Shown here: piece after piece, positions 8,004 to 31,260 of the stretch
Position numbering within the stretch: position 1 is the stretch's first letter
How the letters are laid out: every line of letters starts with the position of its first letter
NCBI GenBank assembly: GCA_905182585.1
Contig: CAJJCC010000048.1
Span: 1 to 32,558 of the forward strand
Direction of reading: 5' to 3'
Origin: an uncultured Flavobacteriales bacterium
GTDB lineage: Bacteria; Bacteroidota; Bacteroidia; Flavobacteriales_C; GCA-002722245
Length of the DNA: 32,558 nucleotides
Notes under the pieces: generated by a model
The model's input: the letters and a program-made list of their open reading frames with translations, nothing else
The model's database searches: none
Told to the model about the DNA's origin: nothing
Program-made: the position numbers and the translations under genes

Positions 8004-11000
8004 GTGCGCAAAATAAGTTTAAAATATTTTGTAATTTTTATTTTTTGCTTGTCGGCATCTTTGTCGTCGAGCAATTTGCATGCTCAAAAGTCTGACCCAA
8101 ATTTAAAAGCCCAAATTAAAGCAAGAAAGGAAGAATTAAAAGCGAAACGAAAAGCTAAAGATATTGAGCGTAAGAGAGATGACTTAGAGTATCGTAAACT
8201 ACTTCAGCAAAAAGAAAAGGCAAAGAAATATCGACAACAGCAACTTAAGAAAGAAGCCGACTTAGCAAAGAAGTATCGAGAAGAACAAGAGGCAAAAAGG
8301 CAAAGAGACCTTTTAAATCAAAAAAAGGAAGAGCGTTCCAAGCAACAAAAGATAGCAGAGGAACAAGCAGAGGAACAAAAACGACTGGCTGAAGAAGCTA
8401 AAGAAGTTTTGCGCGAGAAAGCAAAAGAGCAAAAGCGGCTTGAAAATGAGATCAATGCCCAAAAGGAATTAAATGCTTTAGAGAAGAGGTTTAAAGATGA
8501 GCAGGAGAAAGCAGATGAAATTGCTATTCAAAAGAAAAAAGCACTACAGGAAAAAGAAAAGGCAATTCAAAAAGAACAAGATGATTTAGAAAAGAAAGCC
8601 ACATTAGCTAAAAAGAAAATTGAGCAATACGATAAAACTAAAAATAATGCTCAAGTAGAAGTTGACGAAATAGACTTAAAAAATAGTAAGGAAAAATCAA
8701 CTAATGAAGCTCAAACAGAAGCTCAAAAGAAAATAAAGAAAATTAAAGAGCAACGTGCTTCCGCTAAGGTTAAGGTGGAAATGCGCACTAAAAAGGAGTT
8801 GCAAAAGAAACAACTTTTAGATTTAAGAAAAAGAACAGAGCAAGCAATTCAAAATAGAAAGAGGTTAAAGGATGCAGCGAACAAACGAAAAAAATATGAT
8901 CGAGAACGATTTAAAAAGGAGTTAGTAAAGATTAAAAGAGAAATAGAGAATAGGAGAGATATAGATGGTTTTAAAAGGAAAGCGCTATCTAAGGAGCAAG
9001 AATTAAAACAAAAGTATCAGGATAAAATAAACAAAAAGAATGCAGACCAAAACTCCATTTTAACAGCTAAAGAACAAGCTGCGGCTTCCATAAAAGCAAA
9101 AGTGGATGAGGCTGCTCGTAAAAGAGCTGAAATTCAGAACAAATTAGAAACGGAAAGAAATAGTGAATTAGTAAAAGAAGCTAAAAAGCTCGCTAATGCT
9201 GAGCGTTTATTGGCTGAAGAACAGAAAAAAGATTCTGATCGTCAGCGAAAAGAAGATGAAGCTTTGATAAAGAAGCTCAACAAATTTAAAAATATTGAGA
9301 CCGCAAAAAAAGTAAAATCTCAAGAAAAGAAAAATGCTAAATTGGCAAAACAAGCCGAAATAGCAAAGGAAAAAGCTGCAGAGGCCAAGAAAAAAGCTGC
9401 TTTTGAGGAGGCCCAAAAGATTGCTTTTCAAAAGCGAGAAGAAGAAAAGAAAAAACAAGCTCAGGAAAGAGCTGTAATTGCTTCGGAAAAAGCAAGGAAA
9501 GATGCTGAGTTTGCGGATAGAATGAAAAAACGTGCTGAGAAAGTTGAAGGGCTAAAAGCGGAAGCTGATAAATTAAAACGTGCGATAAAGAAGAAAAAAG
9601 CAGAAGGAAAAGCCAATAGAGATAAGTTAAATAAAGAGTTCTCATTAGGGAAAGATTCTTTAAACATCGCGAAAAAACAAGAAGTATCAAAAGATCAAAT
9701 TGACGAAAGAGAAAGGAAGGAAGGGAGCGAGTTTTTAACAAGAGAGCAAAAGAAAAAACTTGAGCAAGAAGAATTAGTGCGTAAAAACAAAAAGTTAGAA
9801 CGTGAGAAGGCATTAGAAATTCAAAAACTTGCGAATAAAGAAATTCAAAAACATCAAAAAGAATTAGAGAAAAAGGAAAGTGCTTATGCCGATTATCAGC
9901 TGAAGATGGAAGAGAAAGTAAATGCTTCTAAAGAAAACTTAAAGTTGGTTAAGGAAGCGGAAGCAAAGGCGGAGAAGTTGGAAAAAGAAAAGTTAACCGA
10001 AAAGAGAAAGCAATTATTAGAAAAAGAAAGTGAAGCGCAGAGGCGGAAAGCAGTTATAGACAAAAGAATTGCTGATAAACTAAAATTTAAAGATGAGTTA
10101 GCCAATAAGAAGGAGACTTTAAGGCTAAAAGTTCAAGCTGAAAACGATTCTTTAGATCAGGTTGATTTCCTGAATAAACAACAAAAGGATTCTTTATTTG
10201 CCGTAAATAAATTGGAAAAAGCAAAGGAATTGGCTAGGAAACTTGAAGAAAAGGCAAAGATTAAAGCGTTGCTTATCGAGGAAAAGCGTAAAATAATCAA
10301 GGAGAAAGAAGCTCAGATAGAGGAAATAGCCAAAATTAATAGTCCGTTAGAGGAGAAGAAAAAGGCTTTGAAAGAGTTGTCCAGTAAGGATAAAGAGAAG
10401 AAAAGAGCAGAAAAGGTGATAGCTGTTAATATTGCTGAAAAATCTGAGAAGGAAAAACGTATTGGAGGGGCTGAAGTTAAAACATTGGATGTTGCTGTCT
10501 CGGAACCTGAAAAAGCGAAAACGGCTTTAGAATTGGAAAAGCAAAAAATAGCAAAAAGGGAAATAAAACGAAAGAAAGAGCAAGGGGAAATACTAAAGCA
10601 AGCGGAAATCAAAAAAGATAAAGGATTAGATCTAGCTCAAATAGATCAGTTGAAACGGCTTGCCAACAAAAGAGCTGAAGAAAAAAAAGAAGCTCAAAAG
10701 GCAAAGCGGAAAGCGCTTAAAAATCAACAAAAAGAATTAAAAAGAGGAGCTAAGAAGAGAGATGCTCAAATGATTGCCGATGCGAATAAAAGTAATGATG
10801 AAAGGGTAGATAATGTAAAAGAAAAGGTAGTTAAAGCGGCTGTTAGTGATCAGGTGAAAAAAGAAGATCGAGTTGCTGAAAAAAAAGAATCTAAGTATGA
10901 TGAGTTTACTTCCGAATTAGCAAAGAATAATGCTCAGATTGAGGAGAAAGAAAATAAAAAAACAGCAAAAGAGGCTCAAAAACTAAAGAGTCTTCAAGAA

Positions 11001-14000
11001 AAGGATGCGATTCGTAGAGCAAAATTAAAAGCGCGATTAAAGTTAAATGAAAATATACCGGAGAATGAGACTTTCAAAGCAAAGGTGATTCGTGAATTTA
11101 ATGAGGGGAAAGCCATAACGGGACGAAAGAAAAAGCAAAAAGAATTCCTTATTAAGGAGTACCAAAAAGAGGTTAAAAAGAAATTACAAGAACAGGTTAA
11201 GTTGGCTGAAAAGAAGCTGGCTGAGGCAGAGGAAAATGCTGCAATTCAAAAGAAGAACGTAAAAGGTTCTACTTCTTCTAGGAACCAAATGTATTTATAT
11301 TCTAAAAAGATTAAAGAATTAGAAGCTCAGTTGAAAGTTGAGCAGGAGTCTAAGGCTTTAGTTGAAGGTGGGTTAAATGAACTAAACGAATCTGGATTAA
11401 CGGGGAATAATGTTGAGGTAGAACGGAATGAAAAAGAGACGACAATTAAAGCCCGTGAGCTTAAAATAAAAGAGATTAATGAAGAGCTAGATCGATTACG
11501 AGGGTTACATAAAAGAGCGAAAAATAAATATTACGCAAGTAAGGCTAAGCAGAAAGCTAAAAAAGATGAGGATTTAGAAAACGTAAAAGAAAAGCTAGAA
11601 GCGGCTAAGCTTCAGCGTGATTTTGCTAAGTTGGAAACACCAGAACAACGAAATATCAGACTTAAAATTGAAGGTAAAAAACGAAAGCTATTAGCCAAAA
11701 AGCGAAAGCAAAGGTTAAAATTAGAACGTAAGAAAGCAAAATTAGAAGCGCAAAAAAGGGAGTTTAAAATAGCAGAGAAAGAAGCTATTATTAGTAAAAA
11801 AGTCGAGTTAATCAGAAAAACACAAAGAAGACAAGACTTAATTTTAAAAGATAAAGCTCAAGCGGAATTAAAAGCAGAAAATGAAACGGCAGCTTTTAGA
11901 AAAGACAGTATTCGTAATGTAAATAAACTTTTGGTAGATAAGTTAAAGCGTGAAAAGGCTCAGAAGCAAAGAATTGACGAGTTAATAAAACTAGAGGATA
12001 GAGCTAGAATTGATGCTAAATTATCGAGTGAAGCTTTATCTAAAGATGTGAAAAATAAATTACTCAAAGAACGTGAAAGGCTAAGTGGAGAACTCGATAA
12101 AATTGAAATGGAAAGGAATGCTGAATTAAAGAAAAAAAATAGAGCGAAAATAAAGAAAAAAACACGAACTGGTAAGGGGGATAAGGCAAGCATTGCTAGA
12201 GATTCATTAAAACGTATTTTAAACAAAAAGTCAGAAGTTGAATGGCAAAAAATCGCAAATAAAGAAAAGGAGTTAGCTGCAAAAAATAAAGCTAAAAAAC
12301 AAGCCTTAAAGCAAGTAAAGCAAGCTATTACTGATAAGCAAAAAGTAAAGGAAGAGGTGACAGAAGACGAGAAATTAAAACTCGAAAAGCAAAAATATCT
12401 TAAGGAGAAAAAGAGGTTAGAAGAAACTTTAAACGCTGAAAACAAGAAGCTAGATACTAAAGATAAAATGTTAGATGTTACCTACGCATTAAAAATGAAA
12501 GACCTTAAAAAGAAAGCAAAGCTTAAGGGAATTCGAGCGAAAGCTAAAAAGCATGAAAAAGAAGAGAAGCTTAAGAGTAATGCCTTAAATAGTAAAAAGT
12601 TAAGTAAGGATGAAATAAGAATCATGGAATTACGGGAGGAGATTAAGCTACTTGGGAAAGATATTGGAAGTACACGAGACGGTCTGGACGGTGCTAAAAA
12701 TGAACTAAAAGCCATAAAGGAAAAAGGTGATGTTGGAGATGCAATTAAAGAGAACGTCTTGAATAGAAGAGTCTCTAAATATTCAGCTGAGGTGAAGACA
12801 TTGTTAGAAGATTTAAAGCGTAAACAAGAAGAGTTAGATAAATTAATTGGAGGAAAGAATAACAAAGGAGCTGTTGCCAGTAAAGAAAAAACCGAAGATC
12901 TATTAAGAAAATTTCAGGCGTCTGAAAAGCGCAAGGAACTGCTTGAGAAGCGAAAGCAAAGAGTGAAAAACGCAGCTTTAAAAGCAACAGCAGCTAAAGT
13001 TCAAACTGAACAAGTTAGAAATGATCGTGAAGATAGATTAGATAGAATAGCAAAGGCGCAAGAGGATGAGTTAAGAGATGAAATAAAGGCGGCAAAAGAG
13101 GCGCGTAAAAAGAAGAGAAAAGAATTTTTAAAACAGCAAGAAAGAATAGAAGCTGAATTGAATGCATTGGCTGATAAAGAGGCATTGGAAGAAGGTTTAG
13201 AAAGAGAAGTACAAGGTAGAAAAGAAGATCTTGAGCGTATTCAATCTAAACTTTTAAAGAAATTAAATAAGATAGATCAAAAAGAAAAAGATGATAAGGA
13301 ATTTGAAGCTTTAGTTTTTGAAGAATTAAATGAAAAGAAGGAAACCGATGAGAAAAGAAGAAGGGAGCAACGTTATTTAGAAAAGAAAAAAATAGAGAAC
13401 CAGGAGAAAGCTAAAATTGTAAAGAATAAAAAGAAGAATACTGATGATGAAGTCTATTTTAATGCTGAAGCTCAGAAAAGAAAAACTTACACGGACAGTA
13501 TTCGTAAAATAAATGCTGTATCACTGGATGAGTGGACTCGTTTATCATTAGATGCTCGTGAAAAGAAAGAGAATAAGAAAAAAGATAAGAAAAAGGATGA
13601 ATTAGCAAAAGAGTTGAGGCGACGCGAGTTGAAAGATCAGCGTAAAGTTGATGCGTTAAAAAGAAAAGAATTAGATGCAGCTAATATTGAATTAGCTGTG
13701 GAGTTAAAGCGAAAAGCTGCATTGGATAGAAAAATAAATGCAGCAAAAAGAACAGTAGAAGCATTAGCTATACGAAAGGAAGCTAAAGCGTTATTAGAGG
13801 CTAAATTATCTGGTCAAAGAAACTTTGAAGAACGCTTAAGGGATTCTTTAAAGTTTGAAGCTCAAAAATTAGCTGAAAGATTAGTGCCTATTAAAGCTGG
13901 GATTGAAACGATAGAGCGTAGTAAAATTGACTTAGAGGGTGATGTTTTGGACTTAAAGAGTAAGGAACTTCCGATTTTACAACAATACCTTATAACCAAT

Positions 14001-14726
14001 CAAAAAGCAAAAAGTTTAAAGTATCAGAGTGAGCAATTAACACATATTGATAAAATAGAAATAAGAGCAAAAGGCACTAAGGTTGAAAAAGAAGCTTTAG
14101 AAATTAAGTTAAAAGTTAAGCAAAACTATCTGCTAAGATTAGATAAAGAGCGCCAATTGAATATTTATCGTCAAAAATTAGCAGTATTACAAAAGCGATT
14201 AGAAAACCTAGACACTACAAAGGTTGATGACAAGGAAGTAAATAAAGTATTGTTAATTCAATATGGTCAAATTGAAAAAGCTATGGCTTCTGTGAAAATA
14301 GAGATGGAGGGTATTTCTAGTGAGATCATTACAAAAGAAAATGCATACAATGCCGATATTCAATTAGCTCAAAATGAAAGAATAAAATTTGGAGAAGAGG
14401 AGAATAAAAAAAATGGAAGCAAATTAAAAGCGACAGAGTTGGCCGTTGAAATTGAAAAATTAAAAGCACTTTATAAAAATTCTAACACAGGAAGTAAGCA
14501 AGCAGATATTTTAAAGGAAATAGAAGCTTTTCAACGTCAATTACCTGAAGGGATTCACGAAGAGATTTTATACGAAAATAATAGGACGATTAAGAAGTAC
14601 ATCGTGAGTAAAGATGGGAATGTTGATATCTTCAAAATGGTAATGTACAGTTGGGGAACAACTTATTACTTTAAAAATAAAGTAGCGATTACTAAAATGA
14701 GGTTTGATATTGAAACAAAGTATTGA
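8004..14726 (+). CDS. Giant exported coiled-coil protein, 2240 aa
   Basis: I do not recognise a characterised homologue. The GTG start is forced: an in-frame TAG lies 13 bases upstream and the signal peptide begins at once (MRKISLKYFVIFIF, cleavage probably after HAQ near residue 28). Residues 30 to about 2165 are an almost unbroken Lys/Glu/Ala/Arg/Leu/Gln-rich helix with heptad-like spacing. It has only about eight prolines and no cysteine after the signal peptide, so a very long coiled coil or single alpha-helix rod is expected. A short motif Asp-Ser-[Leu/Ile] recurs at residues 551, 715, 729, 1301, 1400, 1831 and 1947. From about 2180 the sequence becomes a compact, probably beta-rich cap with NRTIKKYIV, MYSWGTTYYFKNK and MRFDIETKY. 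A structural or tethering role in the periplasm or at the surface is inferred. The gene is monocistronic, convergent with the MORN-repeat gene, and extremely purine-rich on its coding strand. Confidence 0.9.
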   Translation: MRKISLKYFVIFIFCLSASLSSSNLHAQKSDPNLKAQIKARKEELKAKRKAKDIERKRDDLEYRKLLQQKEKAKKYRQQQLKKEADLAKKYREEQEAKRQRDLLNQKKEERSKQQKIAEEQAEEQKRLAEEAKEVLREKAKEQKRLENEINAQKELNALEKRFKDEQEKADEIAIQKKKALQEKEKAIQKEQDDLEKKATLAKKKIEQYDKTKNNAQVEVDEIDLKNSKEKSTNEAQTEAQKKIKKIKEQRASAKVKVEMRTKKELQKKQLLDLRKRTEQAIQNRKRLKDAANKRKKYDRERFKKELVKIKREIENRRDIDGFKRKALSKEQELKQKYQDKINKKNADQNSILTAKEQAAASIKAKVDEAARKRAEIQNKLETERNSELVKEAKKLANAERLLAEEQKKDSDRQRKEDEALIKKLNKFKNIETAKKVKSQEKKNAKLAKQAEIAKEKAAEAKKKAAFEEAQKIAFQKREEEKKKQAQERAVIASEKARKDAEFADRMKKRAEKVEGLKAEADKLKRAIKKKKAEGKANRDKLNKEFSLGKDSLNIAKKQEVSKDQIDERERKEGSEFLTREQKKKLEQEELVRKNKKLEREKALEIQKLANKEIQKHQKELEKKESAYADYQLKMEEKVNASKENLKLVKEAEAKAEKLEKEKLTEKRKQLLEKESEAQRRKAVIDKRIADKLKFKDELANKKETLRLKVQAENDSLDQVDFLNKQQKDSLFAVNKLEKAKELARKLEEKAKIKALLIEEKRKIIKEKEAQIEEIAKINSPLEEKKKALKELSSKDKEKKRAEKVIAVNIAEKSEKEKRIGGAEVKTLDVAVSEPEKAKTALELEKQKIAKREIKRKKEQGEILKQAEIKKDKGLDLAQIDQLKRLANKRAEEKKEAQKAKRKALKNQQKELKRGAKKRDAQMIADANKSNDERVDNVKEKVVKAAVSDQVKKEDRVAEKKESKYDEFTSELAKNNAQIEEKENKKTAKEAQKLKSLQEKDAIRRAKLKARLKLNENIPENETFKAKVIREFNEGKAITGRKKKQKEFLIKEYQKEVKKKLQEQVKLAEKKLAEAEENAAIQKKNVKGSTSSRNQMYLYSKKIKELEAQLKVEQESKALVEGGLNELNESGLTGNNVEVERNEKETTIKARELKIKEINEELDRLRGLHKRAKNKYYASKAKQKAKKDEDLENVKEKLEAAKLQRDFAKLETPEQRNIRLKIEGKKRKLLAKKRKQRLKLERKKAKLEAQKREFKIAEKEAIISKKVELIRKTQRRQDLILKDKAQAELKAENETAAFRKDSIRNVNKLLVDKLKREKAQKQRIDELIKLEDRARIDAKLSSEALSKDVKNKLLKERERLSGELDKIEMERNAELKKKNRAKIKKKTRTGKGDKASIARDSLKRILNKKSEVEWQKIANKEKELAAKNKAKKQALKQVKQAITDKQKVKEEVTEDEKLKLEKQKYLKEKKRLEETLNAENKKLDTKDKMLDVTYALKMKDLKKKAKLKGIRAKAKKHEKEEKLKSNALNSKKLSKDEIRIMELREEIKLLGKDIGSTRDGLDGAKNELKAIKEKGDVGDAIKENVLNRRVSKYSAEVKTLLEDLKRKQEELDKLIGGKNNKGAVASKEKTEDLLRKFQASEKRKELLEKRKQRVKNAALKATAAKVQTEQVRNDREDRLDRIAKAQEDELRDEIKAAKEARKKKRKEFLKQQERIEAELNALADKEALEEGLEREVQGRKEDLERIQSKLLKKLNKIDQKEKDDKEFEALVFEELNEKKETDEKRRREQRYLEKKKIENQEKAKIVKNKKKNTDDEVYFNAEAQKRKTYTDSIRKINAVSLDEWTRLSLDAREKKENKKKDKKKDELAKELRRRELKDQRKVDALKRKELDAANIELAVELKRKAALDRKINAAKRTVEALAIRKEAKALLEAKLSGQRNFEERLRDSLKFEAQKLAERLVPIKAGIETIERSKIDLEGDVLDLKSKELPILQQYLITNQKAKSLKYQSEQLTHIDKIEIRAKGTKVEKEALEIKLKVKQNYLLRLDKERQLNIYRQKLAVLQKRLENLDTTKVDDKEVNKVLLIQYGQIEKAMASVKIEMEGISSEIITKENAYNADIQLAQNERIKFGEEENKKNGSKLKATELAVEIEKLKALYKNSNTGSKQADILKEIEAFQRQLPEGIHEEILYENNRTIKKYIVSKDGNVDIFKMVMYSWGTTYYFKNKVAITKMRFDIETKY

Positions 14727-15033: not shown

Positions 15034-16764
15034 TCACTTAACCTTGTTGTCCAATTTATATTTTACTTTCTTAACAAGCTTTCCATTCTTGTCATAAAAC
15101 TTAGAATAACCTTCCTTTCTACCATTTTGGTAATTGATTTTACTCTGTACATTTCCATTGCTATAAAAAGTAGTGAAAAGTCCAGATAGCCTCCCGTTTG
15201 AGTAATTTATTTTTTGAAAAGGTATGTCTGTCCCATCAAAATAAACAGTCCATAAACCATTCTTTACCGATTTCTTTAACTCTTGTCTAAACTCTCTTAA
15301 GGCGTCTCTTTTGAACCGAACTGTATCTTGTTCAGTCTTCACAAGCTTGTATTGCCCTTTTTCCCTAATGAATAATCCTTGATCATGATAAACTTCATAA
15401 GAACCATCTAAAAGCCCATTGTTATAAGTGCTTTTAATTCCAGATCTTCCGTTTGTATAAAACTTAGTGTAAGTACCATGTTTAATACCAAGGCTATAGT
15501 TTGCTATGAATTTCTGGTTTCCGTTGTCATAAAACCCTTCCCATTTTTCATCCATAACACCCATAGAGAAACGACCTTTTTCATTCACTTTTCCACTTGA
15601 GTACCATGAAGTCCAAATTCCATTTTCTTTGTCGTCTTTGAATTTACCTTCATGATCCTTTTGTCCACTTTCAAAATAAATAGACCATAAACCATTTCTT
15701 TTGTCTTTTTTAAAATGTGCAATCCTTAACTTTTCCCCTGATTTATATAAGTATTTCCATTTCCCATCTTTAAGCCCTTTTTTGTAAAAAGCGGTATGCT
15801 CAGTTTTTTCAGTTCCAGGAAAATTATACTTCCACTTCCCCTCCCTTAAGCCATTCTTGAAGTTTCCTTTAATTCTAATTTGTCCTTTATTGTACCAAAT
15901 CCAAGTACTATCTTCTGTACCCATTTTGAAATGTCCTTCACTTTCTTTAGTACCATCTAGATTGTAAGCAAACCATTTCCCATTTTCAATTCCATCTATG
16001 TATTGAGTACTGTCCTTAATTTGACCGTTGGTATAGAATACACGATGTTTTCCACTTTTCTTACCTTGATTAAATTCACTTTTATACCAAAGGTTTCCGT
16101 TTTCATACCATTTTGTTATTTCGCCATGCACTTTTCCGTTTAAGTAGATCAATTTACCTTTTGGTGCGCCATTGTCATAAAACTCCATTAATTCCCCTTT
16201 TCCTTCAGATACTGTTTGATAACCTTTTTTATCCCAAGCGTTTAATACGCTATCATATCCATTCGTGAAATATGCTTCTTTGAATTTTTCACCGGTCACA
16301 TACCAGTAAGTAAATGAGCTGTCTTTTTTTTCTTTTTTATAAAATCCTTCCCATTCTTTTATCCCGTTTTCGAAGTAAGATATCCATTTACCTGTTCTTA
16401 AATCGCTACTGTAATCACCTTGTAATTTTATGTTTTTATTAGAGTACCAACTGGCGTATTTTCCATTTCTTTTTCCAGCTTTAAATATTCCTTCATCTTT
16501 TTTGTCTCCATTTTTATAATAATAAGATACAACACCGTGCAATCGTCCAACATTGTAATTCGCAACTTGTTTTAGATTTCCGTTTTGGTACCAGAAAGTC
16601 CATTTGCCATGTTCTTTCCCATTAATGTACTTTCCTTCCGCTTCTTTTTTTCCATTAGGGTACTTGTTTATAATATACTCTGTTGCAGATTGCTCGTTAG
16701 TTTGGGATTGTCCAAAAAGAGAAAAGCTTAAAATTGAAAAGGTGATTAAGTATATAAGTTTCAT
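15034..16764 (-). CDS. Exported protein of about twenty MORN_2/YwqK-type repeats
   Basis: Starting at the ATG of MKLIYLI, the protein has 576 residues; a TTG three codons upstream is also open but less likely. A signal peptide (about 1-19, cleavage after FGQ) is followed by about twenty repeats of 22-24 residues of the form FYxNGxxxxxGxYxxGxxxGxW, for example WYQNGNLKQVANYNVGRLHG and FYSNGNVQSKINYQNGRKEG. These match the MORN_2 (YwqK) repeat, which folds as a stacked beta-hairpin sheet. One break in the array (about residues 455-485) is Arg/Lys/Gln-rich and helical. Such proteins are often auto-named YwqK antitoxins, but nothing here supports a toxin-antitoxin role. The signal peptide places it in the periplasm or beyond. 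It probably serves as a binding scaffold; partners are unknown. Confidence 0.9.
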   Translation of the reverse strand: MKLIYLITFSILSFSLFGQSQTNEQSATEYIINKYPNGKKEAEGKYINGKEHGKWTFWYQNGNLKQVANYNVGRLHGVVSYYYKNGDKKDEGIFKAGKRNGKYASWYSNKNIKLQGDYSSDLRTGKWISYFENGIKEWEGFYKKEKKDSSFTYWYVTGEKFKEAYFTNGYDSVLNAWDKKGYQTVSEGKGELMEFYDNGAPKGKLIYLNGKVHGEITKWYENGNLWYKSEFNQGKKSGKHRVFYTNGQIKDSTQYIDGIENGKWFAYNLDGTKESEGHFKMGTEDSTWIWYNKGQIRIKGNFKNGLREGKWKYNFPGTEKTEHTAFYKKGLKDGKWKYLYKSGEKLRIAHFKKDKRNGLWSIYFESGQKDHEGKFKDDKENGIWTSWYSSGKVNEKGRFSMGVMDEKWEGFYDNGNQKFIANYSLGIKHGTYTKFYTNGRSGIKSTYNNGLLDGSYEVYHDQGLFIREKGQYKLVKTEQDTVRFKRDALREFRQELKKSVKNGLWTVYFDGTDIPFQKINYSNGRLSGLFTTFYSNGNVQSKINYQNGRKEGYSKFYDKNGKLVKKVKYKLDNKVK

Positions 16765-16870
16765 AGAATTCAAGTTATGGTACCAAAATAACTCGAATTA
16801 TCCTGAATAGTCACTTTGTATTCGTTAAATTTTTAACAGTTTAAATTGGATAGAGCTGCAGAAGCTGTAA

Positions 16871-16934: not shown

Positions 16935-17042
16935 AGCGCAGCGTGGGATCTTTAAGTATTTACTTACAGTTTCCTCAGTCCTACCTCCTTCTGAATGACG
17001 TGCGTTGTTTTTTTAATTTCCGTAATCCAGAGCGCAGCGTGG
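16935..17042. repeat. Degenerate dispersed repeat pair with GC-rich 12-mer
   Basis: AGCGCAGCGTGG occurs at 16935-16946 and again at 17031-17042, in otherwise AT-rich DNA. Between them lies CCTCAGTC...CTTCTGAATGACG, whose reverse complement starts CGTCATTCAGAAG. The second copy is preceded by CGTAATCCAG. Both resemble a family of intergenic repeats in some Bacteroidota of the general form GTCATYCTGAGCGCAGCGAAG, here probably two decayed copies in opposite orientation. Confidence 0.5.
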
Positions 17043-17048
17043 TTTTTT

Positions 17049-17077
17049 TTGTTACGAAACAGATGTGTTTACTTATG
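17049..17077 (+). promoter_or_regulatory. Candidate gldN promoter
   Basis: A -33 TTG (17049-17051) is followed after 18 bases by TACTTATG (17070-17077), a seven-of-eight match to TAnnTTTG. It lies 12 bases before the chosen ATG, so the leader would be very short. Confidence 0.4.
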
Positions 17078-17089
17078 ATAATAAAAATC

Positions 17090-17920
17090 ATGAGGAACTT
17101 ATACTGTATATTGTTAATTTTTATTTCCGGTTGCATTTCCGCTCAAACCGTTTCGCCAACTCTTTTAGACGGTGTTTATATTCGAGAGAATAATTTCCAA
17201 AAAAAGCCTATGGCTTACAATTTTGAAAGTGAAGCTAAGCTTATGTGGAGTAAAAGGGTTTGGAGAGTATTGGATTTAAGAGAAAAGATTAATCATCCAT
17301 TTTATTACCCAATACAACCCACTCGAAGTATGCGGAATTTAGTAACCGTGATTCGCGAAAGTTTGTGTGCTAGAGAATTATCTGCATATGATGTAATGAG
17401 TGATGAGTTTTTGTATTTACAAAATTCGGGAGAAGCATGTAAATTGGGCGAAAAAGTAGACACAATTTTTCAGCCCGATGAAAATGGAAACCTAGTGCCA
17501 ATTCCTATAAATGATCCTTTTCCAACCGAAAACGTTCGTCGATTTAGAATAAAAGAAGATTGGTTTTTTGATAACTCAAGAGGAGTGATGGAAGCTCGAG
17601 TGATTGGGATTTGTCCAATAGAAGAAGCTTTTGATGAGTTAGGGGAATATAAAGGAGAGCGTCCTTTGTACTGGATTTACATGCCAGAGTTAAGACATAT
17701 AATAGCTAATGCTCCTGCACCTAATCCACATAATGATGCAGAAAGAAGAACGTATGATGATTTGTTTAATAAAAGACATTTTAGTAGTTATATATATCAG
17801 GAATCGAATGTTTACGGACGAAAAATATCTGATTATAAACAAGATTTAGCCTTGTTATTAGAAGGGAAAAAGATAGAACATGAAATATTTACCTTTGAGC
17901 AGGATTTGTGGGAATATTAA
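17090..17920 (+). CDS. gldN: GldN/PorN family gliding and type IX secretion protein
   Basis: GldN is a periplasmic protein of the T9SS core complex, which with GldK forms rings beneath the outer membrane and contacts the GldLM motor. The frame is open to 16943, but only the ATG of MRNLYCILL gives a signal peptide; this makes 276 residues. Family hallmarks are LLDGVYIRENN, LMWSKRVWRVLDLREKINHP, IKEDWFFDNSRGVMEARVIG, and WIYMPELRHIIAN followed by a DDLFNKRHFSSYIYQESN block. The signal peptide ends CISAQ, suiting ordinary cleavage. ISGC at 12-15 also fits a lipobox, which is unusual for GldN. In most T9SS genomes gldN follows gldKLM; here it stands alone, so it may be a second copy (GldO-like) or a dispersed system. 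Confidence 0.92.
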   Translation: MRNLYCILLIFISGCISAQTVSPTLLDGVYIRENNFQKKPMAYNFESEAKLMWSKRVWRVLDLREKINHPFYYPIQPTRSMRNLVTVIRESLCARELSAYDVMSDEFLYLQNSGEACKLGEKVDTIFQPDENGNLVPIPINDPFPTENVRRFRIKEDWFFDNSRGVMEARVIGICPIEEAFDELGEYKGERPLYWIYMPELRHIIANAPAPNPHNDAERRTYDDLFNKRHFSSYIYQESNVYGRKISDYKQDLALLLEGKKIEHEIFTFEQDLWEY

Positions 17921-30627: not shown

Positions 30628-31260
30628 TTATCCTTTATTGGAGTTTGATTTACCTTTGCTTCCTTTGCTTCCTTTGCTTCTGGTTTTCCACCAAGTATTC
30701 GAGTTCTTTCCTTTTTTTTGTAAATACATTCTTCGATATAACGAACTTTCGAAAAAGAGTAGAGTCATTCCCATTCCAACATGATTACTATATATTTGAG
30801 GCATATACATGTAATCGGCAAAAAAACGTATTCCTTTGTAATTATAGTTTAGTAGTGCTCCGAACATAACGCTTTCTTGAGTCTTCCAGTTTTCACCAAG
30901 TGTAGTTCCGACTGGACTGAAGTTTCTTCTCCAAGTTCCATAATCAAAACCTGTTTGAAGCGAAACGTAAAACTTTTCAAATCGATAAGGAATAATTTCA
31001 ATATTATATTTAGCTCTTAATTCATCAAAATTGTCTTCAGAATTTTGCATTTGAGAAGGGAATATTGTTCCTTGAAGTACAAAGTTTACACCAGGACCTA
31101 ATGGGAAGTTTACTTTTCCGTTTAACCCAGTGTATTGGTCTTCGATTGAATATAAGAAGTTGCCTGATATACTTATCCATTCGTAGTCCACGGCTTTTAA
31201 TTGTGCCTTAGAACTCAGAAAAACACTGCATAGAAAGATGGAGAATAAAAATCGTTTCAT
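30628..31260 (-). CDS. Putative outer-membrane beta-barrel protein with SKG tail
   Basis: I do not recognise a named family. The 210-residue protein starts with a signal peptide (1-19, cleavage after SKAQ). The core (about 25-175) alternates polar and aromatic or hydrophobic residues in short strands, for example WISISGNFLYSI, FYVSLQTGFDYG and GIRFFADYMYMPQ. This fits a small eight-strand barrel. Unusually, it does not end at the last strand but continues with a basic, low-complexity tail, KTRSKGSKGSKGKSNSNKG, partly encoded by a 9-base tandem repeat. The ATG directly follows the phoH stop (TAAATG), and the AEC gene begins five bases downstream. Confidence 0.7.
   Translation of the reverse strand: MKRFLFSIFLCSVFLSSKAQLKAVDYEWISISGNFLYSIEDQYTGLNGKVNFPLGPGVNFVLQGTIFPSQMQNSEDNFDELRAKYNIEIIPYRFEKFYVSLQTGFDYGTWRRNFSPVGTTLGENWKTQESVMFGALLNYNYKGIRFFADYMYMPQIYSNHVGMGMTLLFFESSLYRRMYLQKKGKNSNTWWKTRSKGSKGSKGKSNSNKG
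30653..30679. repeat. 9-base tandem repeat, three copies
   Basis: CCTTTGCTT is repeated three times head to tail on the plus strand, encoding successive Ser-Lys-Gly units in the minus-strand barrel gene. Because the unit is a multiple of three, slippage would alter tail length without breaking the frame. Confidence 0.9.

What the first reader, a model, noticed from the sequence alone, without database searches (positions are those of the whole stretch)
8004..14726. A 6.7-kb gene encodes an exported, almost proline-free 2240-residue helical rod
The protein has one signal peptide, over 2100 residues of uninterrupted Lys/Glu/Ala/Arg-rich helix, about eight prolines, no cysteine after the signal peptide, and only three tryptophans, one of them in the C-terminal cap. 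If it forms a straight coiled coil or single helix, simple geometry (0.15 nm per residue) gives roughly 0.3 micrometres, long enough to span the periplasm lengthwise or to project far from the cell. I know of no described protein that matches. The exciting possibility is a structural filament, cell-surface bristle or envelope scaffold.
Basis: partly seen in the sequence, partly recalled or inferred. Interest (0 to 1): 0.8.

Follow-up and report, generated by a model that had tools for sequence, protein, structure and literature searches.

The report
Giant exported helical stalk protein
An uncultured Flavobacteriales bacterium makes an exported, 2240-residue, highly charged helical protein that is not one unbroken rod but a chain of helical segments ending in a small folded cap, and that cap is an uncatalogued domain shared by a large family of exported stalk proteins in its bacterial class.

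Summary
The ORF is real: 2240 codons, GTG start, signal peptide, 8 Pro, 3 Trp, no Cys after the signal peptide, dN/dS 0.15. Equal-length orthologues exist in the genus (2240-2246 aa, 46-88% identity), and ~1900-aa ones lie beside rplS in a sister genus. The claim of an uninterrupted 2100-residue helix does not hold. AlphaFold models of two stretches show long helices broken by low-confidence linkers (814-840, 937-965), a helical node with tight turns (1043-1207), a helical hairpin (2014-2135) and a C-terminal beta-meander cap (2183-2240). Orthologue indels and relaxed constraint concentrate at 789-1100. Hydrophobic heptads are patchy, so much of the length looks like charged single helix rather than continuous coiled coil.

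The main finding is the cap. It has no match in Pfam, NCBIfam or the PDB, sits at the extreme C-terminus of 53 proteins examined, and occurs in 146 of 295 sampled genomes of the class. Most carriers have a signal peptide, a carboxypeptidase-regulatory-like sandwich and a charged-helix or TPR-like stalk. Giant rods are rare: nine genomes of one family, plus a 3124-aa version in another, beside a SprB-type adhesin. Most likely an envelope spacer or tether docked through the cap; the partner is unknown.

The parts
8004..14726 (+). Complete gene of the 2240-aa helical protein (GTG start, also GTG in the genus orthologues)
   Evidence: orthologues; dN/dS 0.145
8004..8087 (+). Signal peptide, residues 1-28 (VRKISLKYFVIFIFCLSASLSSSNLHAQ), no lipobox
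   Evidence: Read from the translation; orthologues keep a signal peptide ending in AQ or SQ; judged by eye, no predictor was available
8088..10442 (+). Helical segment 1, residues 29-813; no indels among genus orthologues up to ~residue 788 at 46% identity
   Evidence: AF2 covers residues 742-813 only
10443..11129 (+). Flexible region, residues 814-1042: low-confidence linkers 814-840 and 937-965 around helices 841-936 and 966-1014; orthologue indels; dN/dS 0.295 (segment 789-1100)
11130..11624 (+). Conserved helical node 1, residues 1043-1207: helices 1043-1085, 1091-1129, 1135-1207 with tight turns
   Evidence: AF2 pLDDT mostly 83-96 over the helices; conservation peak 1081-1160
11625..13790 (+). 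Helical segment 2, residues 1208-1929, with an indel-prone spot at ~1815-1880
   Evidence: not modelled beyond residue 1240
13791..14399 (+). Conserved helical node 2, residues 1930-2135 (approximately): long helix, then hairpin 2014-2067 / 2081-2135; shared with the 3124-aa rod of another family
   Evidence: AF2; blastp E 6e-24 over residues 1977-2237; profile search
14529..14723 (+). C-terminal cap, residues 2176-2240: three-strand beta-meander (2183-2191, 2194-2203, 2206-2215), short strands 2220-2224 and 2227-2229, final helix 2231-2238; motif YxWGxxYYFKNxxxITxxxFxxET
   Evidence: AF2; A4 profile finds it in 146 of 295 class genomes; always C-terminal; no Pfam, NCBIfam or PDB match

Best explanation
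The gene encodes a soluble envelope protein exported by a cleaved signal peptide. It is built as a long chain of highly charged alpha-helical segments joined by flexible linkers and by two conserved helical nodes, and it ends in a ~60-residue beta-meander cap. The cap is the defining module of a large, uncatalogued family of exported Bacteroidia proteins that put different N-terminal modules and different stalks in front of the same C-terminal cap. The most likely way it works, which is inferred, is as a periplasmic spacer or tether: the cap docks on a fixed envelope partner, and the charged helical segments bridge or lie along the envelope. The giant rod would be a lineage-specific member in which the stalk has become almost the whole protein. 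Shown here: gene, conservation, segment anatomy of two modelled stretches, cap distribution and position. Inferred: signal-peptide cleavage, location, docking role, partner.
For: Orthologues of nearly constant length: 2240, 2240, 2246 and 2244 aa within the genus, and 1901-1927 aa in 4 of 5 sister-genus genomes, all next to rplS. Purifying selection, strongest in the cap. Helix-type charge pairing: E/D to K/R at i+3 z=4.4, K/R to E/D at i+4 z=4.1. AF2 helices and cap fold. Cap at most 13 residues from the C-terminus in all 53 distinct proteins read; it occurs in 146 of 295 class genomes and 66 of 156 genera. Most carriers have a signal peptide, a CarboxypepD_reg-like sandwich, and a charged-helix or TPR-like stalk; one has MORN repeats instead. 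No lipobox; no known type IX sorting domain by Pfam or NCBIfam.
Against: No experiment or predictor places it in the periplasm rather than on the surface. No partner gene recurs beside it: the sister genus has housekeeping neighbours (CinA, TerC), and neighbours of other cap genes vary. Fully extended stalks of many cap proteins (60-300 nm) are far longer than the periplasm is wide, so they cannot simply span it. The indel rate is no lower than in ordinary neighbouring proteins, so a ruler-like length constraint is not proven.
Confidence: 0.45

Rival explanations
1. Gliding or type IX secretion accessory: the rod is a scaffold or connector associated with the Gld track or with SprB-type adhesins.
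For: A GldN paralogue lies 2.2 kb downstream (16943-17920; TIGR03523 over cut-off), also in two genus relatives. In G055 the 3124-aa rod lies 136 bp downstream, on the same strand, of an adhesin with SprB repeat and CHU_C domain. Published work describes parallel periplasmic filamentous structures in F. johnsoniae whose relation to the rails is unknown (PMC9870892).
Against: GldN is in 278 of 295 class genomes, so co-occurrence says little. No GldN gene was found beside the rod in two other genus relatives, and no type IX gene lies beside it in the sister genus. The published track is modelled as GldJ, GldK and GldN, with no such rod (PMC12635249). Most sampled Bacteroidia, nearly all with GldN, lack the rod.
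Confidence: 0.2
2. Cell-surface bristle: the cap is a new kind of C-terminal sorting domain recognised by the type IX system, and the rod projects outward.
For: The cap is always at the extreme C-terminus, as sorting domains are. Almost all sampled genomes carry GldN. One rod gene neighbours a type IX cargo.
Against: No Pfam or NCBIfam type IX signal matches the cap. The AF2 cap is a short meander plus helix, not the seven-strand Ig-like sandwich reported for known CTDs (PMC11285876 abstract). Only 1-8 cap proteins per genome, and their other modules are all stalk-like rather than diverse enzymes.
Confidence: 0.17
3. Polycationic binder: the strongly positive rod coats an anionic polymer (LPS phosphates, extracellular DNA or polysaccharide), and length is incidental.
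For: Net charge +194 to +215 in the genus, spread along the rod.
Against: Charge is not conserved in the family: +49 to +100 in the sister genus and +7 in the 3124-aa rod; other cap proteins range from -62 to +22.
Confidence: 0.08

Closest known systems
TolA (and TonB) periplasmic force transducers
   Same: Long Ala/Lys/Glu helical stalk with a small C-terminal domain; one cap relative (L030) hits the TolA model through its stalk, below cut-off
   Different: Apparent cleavable signal peptide instead of an inner-membrane anchor; the cap has no TolA or TonB C-terminal domain match; about five times longer than TolA (from memory)
SprB-type gliding adhesins and other type IX cargoes
   Same: Exported giant Bacteroidia proteins; one rod gene sits directly after such an adhesin
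   Different: No SprB repeats, no PKD or Ig domains, no CHU_C or Por_Secre_tail domain in the rod
Single alpha-helix (charged SAH / ER-K) domains
   Same: 47% charged residues, i+3/i+4 opposite-charge pairing above shuffled sequence, few hydrophobics (23%)
   Different: Contains heptad patches, proline/glycine linkers and folded nodes; net charge far from neutral in this genus
Bacterial coiled-coil cytoskeletal proteins such as crescentin or FilP (recalled, not searched)
   Same: Long helical, structural-looking protein
   Different: Exported; continuous heptads not found; ends in a beta cap
Uncatalogued Bacteroidia cap-stalk family (defined here)
   Same: Signal peptide, long stalk, same C-terminal cap
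   Different: The giant rods lack the N-terminal beta-sandwich and FDYD motif carried by most members

Membership tests
Cap-stalk family (defined here) | Cap domain at the extreme C-terminus | tested here: met
   Profile A4 (built with this sequence), E 7.5e-31 at window 14532-14723, end gap 0; single-sequence search also finds the distant members
Cap-stalk family (defined here) | Signal peptide and a long stalk before the cap | tested here: met
   Translation and composition; signal peptide judged by eye
Cap-stalk family (defined here) | N-terminal CarboxypepD_reg-like sandwich (most members) | tested here: not met
   Absent in the rods; the helix starts right after the signal peptide
Type IX secretion cargo | Known C-terminal sorting domain (Por_Secre_tail or CHU_C) | tested here: not met
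   No Pfam or NCBIfam match in the whole protein or the cap
TolA / TonB | N-terminal inner-membrane anchor that is not cleaved | tested here: inconclusive
   Hydrophobic N-terminus ends in a signal-peptidase-I-like site by eye; no predictor available
TolA / TonB | C-terminal TolA III or TonB_C domain | tested here: not met
   No Pfam, NCBIfam or PDB match of that kind to the cap
Outer-membrane lipoprotein | Lipobox with Cys at +1 | tested here: not met
   Only Cys is residue 15 in FVIFIFC, not a lipobox and not conserved in aligned orthologues
Continuous two-stranded coiled coil | Sustained hydrophobic heptad along the rod | tested here: not met
   Helical-period power dominant in 29% of 56-residue windows; lag-7 hydrophobic ratio 1.07
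Continuous two-stranded coiled coil | COILS-type score high over the whole length, weighted and unweighted alike | tested here: inconclusive
Single alpha-helix domain | Opposite charges at i+3/i+4 above chance with few hydrophobics | tested here: met
   z 4.4 and 4.1 against shuffles of residues 33-1990
Single alpha-helix domain | Monomeric and helical in solution | not testable with these tools
   Needs circular dichroism and sedimentation

The most novel reading that the evidence does not exclude
The cap defines an unrecognised envelope docking system of Bacteroidia, to which many species attach stalks of chosen length and type. In two families a stalk has grown into a giant exported filament-forming protein, possibly related to the unassigned periplasmic filaments seen in gliding relatives.
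Probability: 0.12. Interest if true: 0.85.

Novelty: new variant of a known kind. Interest (0 to 1): 0.52.

Why it matters
The cap is present in about half of the genomes sampled across the class, often several times, yet is absent from Pfam, NCBIfam and the PDB. Finding its partner would show how a whole class of exported stalk proteins is held in the envelope. The giant rod is the extreme case and a good handle, because its cap is under the strongest constraint and the rest of the protein is simple. The result also corrects the picture of a single straight 0.3-micrometre helix.

Tried and rejected
1) Whole-protein family searches: Pfam and NCBIfam gave nothing. PDB sequence searches with the cap and pre-cap profiles gave only chance-level hits. 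Foldseek on the C-terminal model gave no match with E <= 0.001; its short SMC-head and methyltransferase overlaps look like generic meanders. 2) Alignment A2 was too diverse for a collection scan; the tighter A3 was used. 3) Length as a molecular ruler: indels per 100 substitutions in the rod (0.67-0.75) lie within the range of neighbouring ordinary proteins (0-2.6), though below two pairs of other stalk proteins (2.9, 3.7), so I do not claim special length selection. 4) Link to type IX secretion through GldN co-occurrence: rejected as evidence because GldN is nearly universal in the sample. 5) SMC as an in-genome coiled-coil yardstick: no hit over the cut-off in these genomes. 6) Plasmid records: no cap. 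7) RNA families in the window: none. 9) My beta-sandwich profile also flagged the 3124-aa rod, probably through the helical part of the profile; by eye that protein has no sandwich.

Full report
OBSERVATION. The reading frame 8004-14726 (+) is open for 2240 codons from GTG. G+C of the gene equals that of the window (33.5% and 33.4%). The gene is under purifying selection against an 88%-identical orthologue: dN/dS 0.145 overall, 0.10 for residues 29-788, 0.295 for 789-1100, 0.04 for the cap. It is therefore a real protein, not a composition artefact.

ORTHOLOGUES. The four other genomes of the genus have it (three full length, 2240-2246 aa, 88-46% identity; one frame-broken in the assembly). 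Four of five sister-genus genomes have a 1901-1927-aa version, always beside rplS. In the fifth, G007, neither the rod nor L19 was found, so an assembly gap is possible. The named records behind them are uncultured Flavobacteriales or Bacteroidetes MAGs.

IS IT ONE ROD? Not as described. I modelled two stretches with AlphaFold2. Residues 741-1240 (pLDDT 74) give helices 742-813, 841-936, 966-1014, 1043-1085, 1091-1129, 1135-1207 and 1213 onward, separated by low-confidence coil at 814-840 and 937-965 and by loops and tight turns. Residues 1930-2240 (pLDDT 82) give helices 1931-2011, 2014-2067, 2081-2135, 2143-2159 and 2163-2178 and then the cap. Independent evidence agrees: orthologue indels within the genus cluster at 789-1100, 1815-1880 and ~2141, and none lie in the first ~788 residues; prolines 781, 835 and 1019 fall in or next to the flexible region; constraint is weakest at 789-1100. 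Residues 29-740 and 1241-1929 were not modelled. The alignments were shallow (8-9 sequences), and monomer models of charged helices say nothing about oligomers.

COILED COIL OR SINGLE HELIX? Opposite-charge pairs at i+3 and i+4 exceed shuffled sequence (z 4.4, 4.1), as expected of a helix. Hydrophobic heptads are weak: lag-7 ratio 1.07; the helical period dominates in 29% of windows, in patches such as 113-225, 477-560, 589-670 and 1401-1480. My COILS-like score (matrix from memory, approximate) drops from 79% to 61% when the core positions are weighted, a usual sign that charge inflates the score. I read most of the length as charged single-helix-like sequence with local coiled-coil patches.

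THE CAP. The last ~65 residues have relatives at the C-terminus of many exported proteins. A 19-sequence profile finds the cap in 146 of 295 genomes sampled across the class, 66 of 156 genera, up to 8 per genome, but in only 3 of 248 of a phylum draw restricted to near-complete genomes, whose listed members belong mostly to other families. The distribution is therefore patchy and I do not give a phylum-wide frequency. In all 53 distinct proteins read, the cap ends at most 13 residues from the C-terminus. Architectures: about 37 with a CarboxypepD_reg-like sandwich and FDYD-type motif, followed by either a charged helix or TPR-like YPxxKI repeats; one with MORN repeats; ten giant rods; the rest fragments or short. 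No Pfam, NCBIfam or PDB match.

THE GIANT RODS. A profile of the pre-cap node finds only family f1 (9 of 10 genomes), G055 (family f47), and one marginal hit. G055 carries a 3124-aa rod; blastp aligns window residues 1977-2237 with its residues 2864-3116 (E 6e-24) and nothing upstream. The shared, homologous part is thus node 2 plus cap; the long helical parts of the two are not demonstrably homologous.

SURROUNDINGS. In the window: L19, then the rod, then an exported MORN_2 protein on the other strand, then a GldN paralogue, pyrophosphatase, and mostly housekeeping genes. The GldN paralogue is present beside the rod in two genus relatives and was not found there in two others. In G055 the rod follows an adhesin with SprB repeat, PKD, Ig and CHU_C domains by 136 bp on the same strand. 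In the sister genus the neighbours are CinA and TerC. GldN is in 278 of 295 class genomes, so these links to type IX secretion are suggestive only.

MECHANISM. Shown: exported-type N-terminus (by eye), conserved segmented helical protein, uncatalogued C-terminal cap shared with other stalk proteins. Inferred: location in the periplasm, the cap as docking module, the helical chain as spacer or tether. Rivals are a gliding or type IX scaffold, a surface bristle with a new sorting domain, and a polycation coat; the last is weakened because the net charge is not conserved (+194 to +215 in the genus, +49 to +100 in the sister genus, +7 in G055).

LITERATURE. F. johnsoniae shows periplasmic parallel filamentous structures of unknown relation to its GldJ-containing rails (PMC9870892); the published mobile track is modelled as GldJ, GldK and GldN (PMC12635249). 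I found no paper describing this protein or cap in the searches made, which cover open-licence papers only.

Noticed in passing
16943-17920 (+): A GldN (type IX ring subunit) gene with no gldK, gldL or gldM beside it and a pyrophosphatase downstream; the incomplete genome has a second, partial GldN match on another contig.
   Followed up: partly
15034-16773 (-): Exported 579-aa protein made of MORN_2 repeats, partly like the LIC20035 adhesin model (below cut-off); conserved beside the rod in the genus. MORN repeats also form the N-terminus of one cap protein (L032).
   Followed up: partly
L063:2021-11395 (-) and 11532-14000 (-): 3124-aa rod of another family, directly downstream of an adhesin with SprB repeat and CHU_C domain.
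   Followed up: partly
L034, L075, L077, L078, L079, L080, L081: Beta-sandwich cap genes repeatedly lie beside an FAD-dependent oxidoreductase-like gene (GIVGL and GASTKNAGFACFGSPTE motifs, judged by eye).
   Followed up: no
L048:6523-7881 (-) and L049:6138-7499 (-): A second exported ~450-aa Lys/Glu-rich helical protein without a cap in two genus relatives, similar to the rod's N-terminal part (E 1e-4 to 4e-10, possibly composition).
   Followed up: no
L024:6247-12994 (-): The G001 copy of the rod is split by a frameshift; sequencing error and real decay cannot be told apart.
   Followed up: no
30653-30680: Three copies of the 9-base unit CCTTTGCTT inside an unassigned 210-aa reading frame.
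   Followed up: no
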